DNA from: an uncultured beta proteobacterium
GTDB lineage: Bacteria; Pseudomonadota; Gammaproteobacteria; Burkholderiales; Burkholderiaceae_C
NCBI GenBank assembly: GCA_903938815.1
Contig: CAJAES010000034.1
Coordinates: forward strand, 1 to 64,000
Direction: 5' to 3'
Length of the DNA stretch: 64,000 nucleotides
Within the stretch, counting starts at the first letter, position 1. Each line of letters opens with the position of its first letter. Under the pieces are notes generated by a model. It saw nothing but the letters and a program-made list of their open reading frames with translations, was not told where the DNA came from and did not search any database. Both the position numbers and the translations under genes were made by a program. Of the stretch, positions 62,575-64,000 are shown in pieces.

Positions 62575-63579
62575 ATGACCGCTGCGGTCCAGCTCGAAGA
62601 CGTGGAGTGCGTCTTCGGCAGCGGAGCCTCGGCCGTGCGCGCCGTGGACCGCGTGAACCTGAGCATCGAAGCGGGCGAGTTCTTCACCCTGCTCGGGCCT
62701 TCGGGCTCGGGCAAGACGACCTGCCTTCGGATGATCGGGGGCTTCACGCTGCCCACGGCCGGCCGCATCCGCATCGGCGACGCGGACGTGACGCTCGCCC
62801 CGCCCTATGCGCGCCCGGTGAACACCGTGTTCCAGGACTACGCGCTGTTCCCTCATATGAGCCTGCGCGACAACGTGGCCTACCCGCTGATGGTGCGCGG
62901 CGTGGGCAAGGCCGAGCGCGTGCGCAAGGCCGACGAACTGCTGGCCCTGGTGCAGCTGCCCGGACTCGGCGACCGGCGCCCGAGCGCCCTGTCCGGCGGG
63001 CAGCGCCAGCGTGTCGCCCTGGCCCGGGCCCTGATCGGCCAGCCGCAGGTGCTGCTGCTCGACGAACCCCTCGGCGCGCTCGACCTGAAGCTGCGCGAGC
63101 AGATGCAGACCGAGCTGAAGGCGCTGCAGCGGCGCCTGGGCATCACCTTCCTGTTCATCACGCACGACCAGCACGAGGCGCTCTCCATGAGCGACCGCAT
63201 CGGCGTCTTCAACGCCGGCCGCCTGGAGCAGGTGGGCACGCCGCCCGAGGTCTACAACGCGCCGACCACACGCTTCGTCGCACAGTTCGTCGGCGCTGCC
63301 AACGTGCTGGACGGCGAGACGGCGCGGCGCTTCACCGGCCACGGCGCCGCGATGCTGCGGCCCGAGCGCATCCGCATCGGCGGCGCGGAGCAGGCGCGCG
63401 CCAGCGGCACGGTGGCCGAGGTGCAGTACTTCGGCGCCTTCACCCGCGTGAAGGTCGACACCGGGGGCGCCTTGCTGCAGGCCGACCTGCCGGCCGACCC
63501 CGGCACCTCCGCGCCGGAGGCGGGCAGCGCCGTCCACCTGCACTGGGACGCGCGGGCGGTGCACGCGCTGGCGGGCTGA
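62575..63579 (+). CDS. ABC transporter ATP-binding protein (PotA-like, TOBE domain)
   Basis: LLGPSGSGKTTCLRMIGGF; ALSGGQRQRVALARALI; LLLDEPLGALDLKLREQMQTELK. Confidence 0.95.
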   Translation: MTAAVQLEDVECVFGSGASAVRAVDRVNLSIEAGEFFTLLGPSGSGKTTCLRMIGGFTLPTAGRIRIGDADVTLAPPYARPVNTVFQDYALFPHMSLRDNVAYPLMVRGVGKAERVRKADELLALVQLPGLGDRRPSALSGGQRQRVALARALIGQPQVLLLDEPLGALDLKLREQMQTELKALQRRLGITFLFITHDQHEALSMSDRIGVFNAGRLEQVGTPPEVYNAPTTRFVAQFVGAANVLDGETARRFTGHGAAMLRPERIRIGGAEQARASGTVAEVQYFGAFTRVKVDTGGALLQADLPADPGTSAPEAGSAVHLHWDARAVHALAG

Positions 63580-63672
63580 GCGTGGTGCGTGCGATGCCAG
63601 ATTCCGGCCCGTTGCGGACGTTTCCCGAGGTCCGCTGCGTTCTGATCCTCGAGCCCTGCGTTCGGAGGTTGC

Positions 63673-63782
63673 GCGGGCCAAGGCTGGTGGGCCCCCTCCC
63701 ACTCCATGTCCTCCGCCAGCGGCCGCAGGCCGCTGGCTCCCCCTTGACTTCCGTGGGAGGGGGCCCACCAGCCTTGGCCTGC
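63673..63782. repeat. Nested palindromic element A: 27-bp perfect outer inverted repeat with a 10-bp inner hairpin
   Basis: GGCCAAGGCTGGTGGGCCCCCTCCCAC (63676-63702) / GTGGGAGGGGGCCCACCAGCCTTGGCC (63753-63779); inner GCCAGCGGCC-GCA-GGCCGCTGGC (63715-63737). Confidence 0.95.
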
Positions 63783-63873
63783 CGTCTTGGTGGCATGCGC
63801 TGCATCACCACAAAAACGGCGGCCGCAGCAGCATGGGCGGGGCTCGACCGCCGAGCGCCAACAGCGTCATTGG

Positions 63874-63971
63874 CCGAGTGCGGTGGGCGCCCTTCCCCGG
63901 AAGTAAAGGGGGAGGAGCGGGCGCAGCCCGGTCCGGAGGACATGGAGGGGAAGGGTGCCCGCCGCACTCGG
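63874..63971. repeat. Nested palindromic element B: 25-bp outer inverted repeat (2 wobble positions) with a 5-bp inner hairpin; same core as A, opposite orientation
   Basis: CCGAGTGCGGTGGGCGCCCTTCCCC (63874-63898) / GGGGAAGGGTGCCCGCCGCACTCGG (63947-63971); inner CGGGC-GCA-GCCCG (63918-63930). Confidence 0.93.
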
Positions 63972-64000
63972 TCTGCGCGATCTACGCGGGTACCTGCTGG

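What the first reader, a model, noticed from the sequence alone, without database searches (positions are those of the whole stretch)
63874..63971. Nested palindrome B: same core in the opposite orientation with wholly different but still paired outer stem
Seen: on the minus strand B reads CTCCATGTCCTCCG (63934-63947), then inner hairpin CGGGC-TGC-GCCCG, then CTCCCCCTTTACTTCCG (63898-63914): 14/14 and 16/17 identity to element A's blocks. Its outer arms (CCGAGTGCGGTGGGCGCCCTTCCCC / GGGGAAGGGTGCCCGCCGCACTCGG) have a different sequence but pair fully, the two mismatches being G-U compatible. Conserved unpaired blocks with freely exchanged paired arms is the signature of a family selected for secondary structure. 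Two copies head-to-head ~90 bp apart suggest a BIME-like pair. This looks like a distinct repeat family that I cannot match to a named one.
Basis: seen in the sequence. Interest (0 to 1): 0.75.

Follow-up and report, generated by a model that had tools for sequence, protein, structure and literature searches.

The report
Paired nested hairpins between bacterial genes
This is one half of a small mobile-looking DNA element, two hairpins facing each other, scattered between genes in many Beta- and some Gammaproteobacteria; the stems keep pairing while their letters change and only one DNA strand of each hairpin keeps a good fold, so that single folded strand is probably what an unknown enzyme or protein recognises.

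Summary
A (63675-63780) and B (63871-63974) are two copies of one ~104-nt element: a stem of fixed length, a conserved two-sided internal loop (CATGTCCYCCG / CTCCYCCTTKACTT) and an inner hairpin. The element nearly always occurs as an inverted doublet with a tight core-to-core distance (mostly 100-113 bp). In 147 non-redundant copies the stems are only 44% identical yet pair 85% in register, and pairing stops abruptly near position 30. New: non-Watson-Crick stem cells are wobbles on the purine strand about 7:1 to 10:1 (control hairpins about 1:1), so a single folded purine strand, RNA or ssDNA, is what is maintained. Both hairpins of a doublet are kept equally, whatever the gene direction. The window's doublet was gained where 13 of 15 congeners have none. 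It works most like a REPIN (mobile REP doublet) but fails REP membership: no GTAG/CGTC tag, larger, and several doublet-rich genomes, including this one, have no Y1 (RAYT-type) transposase. The mobilising enzyme is unknown. No Rfam match; no description found in open literature.

The parts
63675..63704 (+). Element A, outer arm (5' on +); pairs with 63751-63780
   Evidence: (I3, 97% complementary)
63705..63715 (+). Element A, conserved block 1 CATGTCCTCCG
   Evidence: columns 90-100% conserved in 147 copies except the C/T position (76%)
63716..63736 (+). Element A, inner hairpin CCAGCGGCCGCAGGCCGCTGG
63737..63750 (+). Element A, conserved block 2 CTCCCCCTTGACTT (the folding, purine-rich strand of A is the minus strand)
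63751..63780 (+). Element A, outer arm (3' on +)
63781..63870 (.). Spacer between the two hairpins (about 90 bp here; typically about 40-50 bp in the family), not conserved between genera
63871..63900 (+). Element B, outer arm (5' on the purine strand); pairs with 63945-63974
   Evidence: (I4, 92% complementary)
63901..63914 (+). Element B, complement of block 2: AAGTAAAGGGGGAG
63915..63933 (+). Element B, inner hairpin GAGCGGGCGCAGCCCGGTC
63934..63944 (+). Element B, complement of block 1: CGGAGGACATG
63945..63974 (+). Element B, outer arm (3' on the purine strand)
63600..63622 (+). Left outer inverted repeat (GGCCCGTTGCGGACGTT at 63606-63622) shared by doublets of this genus; the right partner is degenerate in this copy and lies just beyond the window's end
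62575..63579 (+). Upstream gene: ABC transporter ATPase with TOBE_2 domain; in 13 of 15 congeners the permease gene follows it without an element

Best explanation
A non-autonomous mobile intergenic doublet: two ~104-nt nested hairpins in inverted orientation, about 250 bp between the outer stem ends in the typical copy. Each is recognised as a folded single strand, the purine-rich one, through its structured internal loop and a stem of fixed length, by a trans-acting enzyme not yet identified. SHOWN: the structure, covariation, strand asymmetry, fixed geometry, doublet rule, intergenic placement after stop codons, gain at an empty site, near-identical copies at different sites in some genomes, and patchy distribution. 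INFERRED: that the folded strand is ssDNA exposed during replication or excision rather than RNA, that the fold is the substrate of a single-strand-acting transposase or recombinase, and that each strand of the doublet supplies one substrate hairpin, as left and right ends.
For: Doublet + then - in 66 loci with one counter-example; core-to-core distance mostly 100-113 bp. Arms 44% identical but 85% paired in register, 49% with shuffled partners, 41% or less off register; 465 cells changed on both sides versus 145 in shuffles. Pairing (WC plus purine-strand wobble) 83-98% for n = 7-29 and about 0.35 beyond n = 31 in 162 copies: fixed stem length. Strand asymmetry: A.C 269 versus G.T 27 on the pyrimidine strand, inner hairpin 41 versus 7; 121 versus 4 elements (sign test 4.7e-31), control hairpins of the same loci 55 versus 61; purine strand more stable in 144/147 (RNA) and 147/147 (DNA). 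The hairpin that is antisense to the operon is kept equally (A.C:G.T 57:6; sense 72:1), which points away from a purely cis mRNA role. No element at the same site in 13 of 15 congeners. Near-identical copies at different sites in G027 and Luteimonas terricola. Patchy: 10 of 200 genomes of the order, up to 19 copies.
Against: No transposase found; no target-site duplication demonstrated. Some doublets look old and vertically inherited: the pccB-pccA site in L096, L135, L140 and L195 has related but compensated arms, so a host function in situ is possible. The wobble asymmetry fits folded RNA as well as ssDNA. Near-absence from plasmids and phages is unusual for an active transposon, though normal for REP-type elements. 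The set is drawn from pattern hits, so distant variants are missed.
Confidence: 0.5

Rival explanations
1. A structured RNA element of 3' regions: the purine-strand hairpin acts in the transcript (RNase III/E control, mRNA end protection, or binding of a protein to the internal loop). The inverted doublet makes it work whichever way it lies.
For: Placement after stop codons: 41 co-directional, 14 convergent, only 3 divergent. Wobble tolerance on one strand. Internal loop with G.A-type mismatches and contacts a2-b13 (A:T/G:C) and a8-b5 (C/T swapped with T/C, i.e. G.A swapped with A.G on the purine strand). Old copies with compensatory changes.
Against: In co-directional sites the operon-antisense hairpin is kept as well as the sense one. 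No T-run after the stem (0 of 291 on the purine strand), so not an intrinsic terminator. No Rfam match.
Confidence: 0.27
2. REPIN/BIME in the strict sense: dispersed by a RAYT (Y1, TnpA_REP).
For: Inverted doublet, preferred spacing, spacer free in sequence, extragenic (PMC3116915); strand-specific hairpin with a conserved mismatch region, as in E. coli REP (PMC8266576).
Against: No Y1_Tnp in the own genome, nor in G226 (17 copies), G240 (19), G024, G014. Y1 genes of the genus show no clear association with the element, and the eleven neighbourhoods inspected are not flanked by it. No GTAG/CGTC tag conserved at the stem base.
Confidence: 0.08
3. Recombination site of a cassette system (attC-like): the folded strand captures genes such as toxin-antitoxin modules.
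For: hipBA between two B copies in L195, a Fic gene between two B copies in L306, an extra ORF inside the doublet in L307. A folded single strand with free arms resembles attC.
Against: Only three cases among all loci read; no arrays; no R/L boxes (RYYYAAC/GTTRRRY) at the stem bases in 291 copies.
Confidence: 0.07
4. Complementarity of the arms is kept by hairpin-templated correction (a mutational by-product), not by selection.
For: Arms pair almost perfectly while drifting freely.
Against: Templated correction in a cruciform treats both strands alike and should not give the observed strand bias; control hairpins show none. Stem length is fixed.
Confidence: 0.05

Closest known systems
REPIN (REP doublet forming hairpins; PMC3116915)
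   Same: Inverted doublet as the unit, preferred spacing, extragenic, spacer free in sequence with compensatory changes, miniature, dispersed within genomes.
   Different: Each half is about 104 nt with a nested inner hairpin and a 25-nt conserved two-part loop instead of a short REP; no GTAG/CGTC tag; no RAYT in several carrier genomes; few copies (up to 19 hairpins per genome here).
E. coli REP/BIME recognised by TnpA_REP (PMC8266576)
   Same: Strand-specific hairpin with a conserved mismatch (bulge) in the stem; BIME arrangement.
   Different: Size, tag and enzyme differ; here the stem letters are largely free.
ERIC/IRU repeats (about 127-bp imperfect palindromes of Enterobacteriaceae; own knowledge)
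   Same: Length of one unit, intergenic position.
   Different: ERIC is conserved in sequence along its length and is not an obligate doublet (own knowledge, not tested).
Integron attC sites (own knowledge)
   Same: Recognised as a folded single strand; variable stem sequence.
   Different: R/L boxes absent; no arrays; the conserved part lies in the middle, not at the base.
BoxC/PIT intrastrand-triplex motifs (PMC4666352)
   Same: Intergenic purine/pyrimidine-rich hairpins not tied to plasmids or phages.
   Different: Consensus absent in 291 copies.

Membership tests
REPIN / REP-BIME | Two inverted hairpin units at preferred spacing as the unit | tested here: met
REPIN / REP-BIME | GTAG or CGTC tetranucleotide next to the palindrome | tested here: not met
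   no conserved column outside the stem; GTAG in 8 and CTAC in 9 of 162, CGTC/GACG in 29-31 of 162 without a fixed position
REPIN / REP-BIME | Short palindrome of about 20-50 nt | tested here: not met
   about 104 nt, stem register to n = 29-30
REPIN / REP-BIME | RAYT (Y1 transposase) in the genome, often next to the repeats | tested here: not met
REPIN / REP-BIME | Cleavage of one folded strand by the transposase | not testable with these tools
   strand asymmetry is only compatible with it
MITE | Conserved terminal inverted repeats | tested here: inconclusive
   Lineage-specific outer repeats in this genus and in Luteimonas, but not a general feature
MITE | Target-site duplication | tested here: inconclusive
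   empty sites too diverged to read one
MITE | Filled and empty sites in relatives | tested here: met
Integron attC | RYYYAAC / GTTRRRY boxes at the stem base | tested here: not met
   0 of 291
Intrinsic terminator | T-run directly after the stem | tested here: not met
   0 of 291 on the purine strand, 4 of 291 on the other
BoxC/PIT triplex motif | CCCTCNCCCN3-6GGGNGAGGGN3GGGNGAGGG | tested here: not met
   0 of 291
Any Rfam 15 family | Covariance-model match at gathering score | tested here: not met

The most novel reading that the evidence does not exclude
A mobile doublet class of its own, spread across Beta- and Gammaproteobacteria, in which a purine-rich internal loop with G.A-type contacts on one folded strand is the recognition motif of an enzyme that is not a Y1 transposase; or, if the strand acts as RNA, an undescribed structured RNA motif made in both directions from one element.
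Probability: 0.35. Interest if true: 0.8.

Novelty: new variant of a known kind. Interest (0 to 1): 0.62.

Why it matters
It adds a widespread repeat family with a stringent built-in test: stem letters are free while pairing, stem length, spacing and a wobble bias on one strand are kept, so a folded single strand must matter. It gives a system in which to ask how REP-like doublets persist and move without a RAYT, and which host or mobile protein reads the loop. It also warns that such doublets coincide with contig ends in some draft genomes, so copy numbers are likely underestimated.

Tried and rejected
Rfam at gathering and relaxed thresholds: nothing credible. RAYT/Y1 transposase as mobiliser: no clear association. 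Plasmids and phages: only large replicons of Variovorax and Burkholderia, no phage record; two IMG/VR contigs. Literature by sequence and by words: no description found; the GTAG/CGTC survey PMC3733652 does not mention Burkholderia, Variovorax, Acidovorax, Rubrivivax or Xanthomonas. Outer inverted repeats as a general terminal repeat: not supported across genera. The outer repeat of the own genome also occurs beside other small repeats, so it is not specific. Intrinsic terminator, attC, BoxC/PIT: rejected. G-quadruplex from the two GGRGGA copies: predicted in only 21 of 147 folds, left open. Apparent cores near Y1 genes in L217, L222, L223: L217 is low-complexity sequence; L222 and L223 were judged chance matches in the neighbouring coding region and not examined further.

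Full report
OBSERVATION. The letters and coordinates given are right. B (63871-63974) and A (63675-63780) share a core in opposite orientation: block 1 CATGTCCYCCG, inner hairpin, block 2 CTCCYCCTTKACTT, enclosed by different outer arms. B's two arm mismatches are G.T wobbles on the plus strand. BLAST with B gives eight places in the 5.28-Mb own genome, in four A-spacer-B doublets; the covariance model adds a ninth place at the edge of contig C74, where the partner runs off the contig.

FAMILY. Relatives of the same genus carry the core with other arms. An exact pattern in 85,488 species genomes returned 120 stretches and stopped at its limit: Burkholderiales (Rubrivivax, Hydrogenophaga, Rhodoferax, Variovorax, Ideonella, Methylibium and others), Rhodocyclaceae, and Xanthomonadaceae (Luteimonas, Pseudoxanthomonas, Lysobacter; titles). 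In these loci 66 complete doublets run + then - and one runs - then +. Core-to-core distance in 101 doublets is concentrated at 100-113 bp. A model search of 200 genomes of the order found it in 10, with up to 19 hairpins per genome: patchy.

STRUCTURE. In 147 non-redundant elements the left arms are 44% identical on average, yet arms pair 85% in register (shuffled partners 49%, other registers at most 41%), while most block columns are 97-100% conserved. On alignment A3, 86.1% of cells pair (shuffled 57.8%, slid at most 46.7%) and 33 of 34 pairs show changes on both sides. Counting Watson-Crick plus purine-strand wobble, pairing is 0.83-0.98 for n = 7-29 and falls to about 0.35 after n = 31: the stem has a fixed length. 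Mid-stem GGGTG/CACCC (n = 13-17) is semi-conserved. Inside the loop, a2-b13 covaries A:T with G:C, and a8-b5 swaps C/T with T/C, which on the purine strand is G.A with A.G. L-1.R1 and a1.b14 are conserved pyrimidine mismatches, which on the purine strand would be tandem G.A; that reading is inference.

STRAND. Read on the pyrimidine strand, stem exceptions are A.C 269 against G.T 27, inner hairpin 41 against 7. A.C there is G.T/G.U on the purine strand. By element the bias is 121 to 4 (p 4.7e-31; elements of related genomes are not fully independent), while 125 other hairpins of the same loci give 55 to 61. The purine strand also folds better (144/147 with RNA, 147/147 with DNA parameters). 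A mutational process on double-stranded DNA would not choose the strand, so I infer that a folded single purine strand is maintained. This does not tell RNA from ssDNA.

CONTEXT. Of 58 doublets with called flanks, 41 lie between co-directional genes, 14 between convergent and 3 between divergent ones (gene direction called by a simple GC3 method of my own). In co-directional sites the hairpin that is antisense in the operon transcript is about as well kept as the sense one (A.C:G.T 57:6 and 72:1; core mismatches 0.54 and 0.34 per element, difference not significant). A purely cis mRNA role would not predict this.

MOBILITY. At the window's site (ATPase gene, then permease gene) 13 of 15 congeners have no element, G074 has one of its own, and G000 has the 460-bp insert. 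Near-identical copies occur at different sites in G027 and in Luteimonas terricola. Older copies exist too: at pccB-pccA in L096, L135, L140 and L195 the arms are related and compensated.

MECHANISM. Best supported: a REPIN-like, non-autonomous mobile doublet read as a folded single strand by an unidentified protein. Shown: structure, strand bias, geometry, doublet rule, gain at an empty site. Inferred: ssDNA rather than RNA, and the enzyme. A Y1 (RAYT) transposase is unlikely as the present mobiliser: none in G000, G024, G014, G226, G240, and the Y1 neighbourhoods inspected in the genus are not flanked by the element. The main rival is a 3'-region RNA element.

KNOWN? It works like a REPIN (PMC3116915), and E. 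coli REP also has a conserved bulge read on one strand (PMC8266576). It is not a member by the tag, size and RAYT tests. No Rfam match; the papers holding core letters were unrelated to bacterial repeats. Only open-access text was searched, so a description elsewhere cannot be excluded.

LIMITS.

Noticed in passing
L195:4804-6894: hipB-hipA toxin-antitoxin module between two direct copies of element B at the pccB-pccA site.
   Followed up: partly
L306:536-2335 (G240:C2): Fic-family gene between a broken B copy and a complete B copy.
   Followed up: partly
L307:980-2629 (G240:C16; same place as L106): A doublet opened up by about 1.5 kb holding a 230-aa ORF without a Pfam match.
   Followed up: partly
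L153:1178-1725: A small insert with ends CCCTAGATTCGGYAGTTG interrupts a B core.
   Followed up: no
L097 and L120: Inverted copies of one doublet flank 4.8 kb (including ABC transporter genes) and about 3.5 kb.
   Followed up: no
G000:C29:127374, C80:116367, C41:35445, C64:29089: The outer repeat GGCCCGTTGCGGACG recurs away from any doublet, in part beside other small intergenic repeats.
   Followed up: partly
Genomes G025, G027 and others: Several contigs end within about 150 bp of an element, suggesting that the hairpins or repeats break assemblies.
   Followed up: no
L099, L134, L138, L142, L149, L151: Two semi-conserved arm tips (CCAAGG-type and GATCRGG-type) recur across families and some doublets carry one of each; automatic classification left most arms unassigned.
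   Followed up: partly
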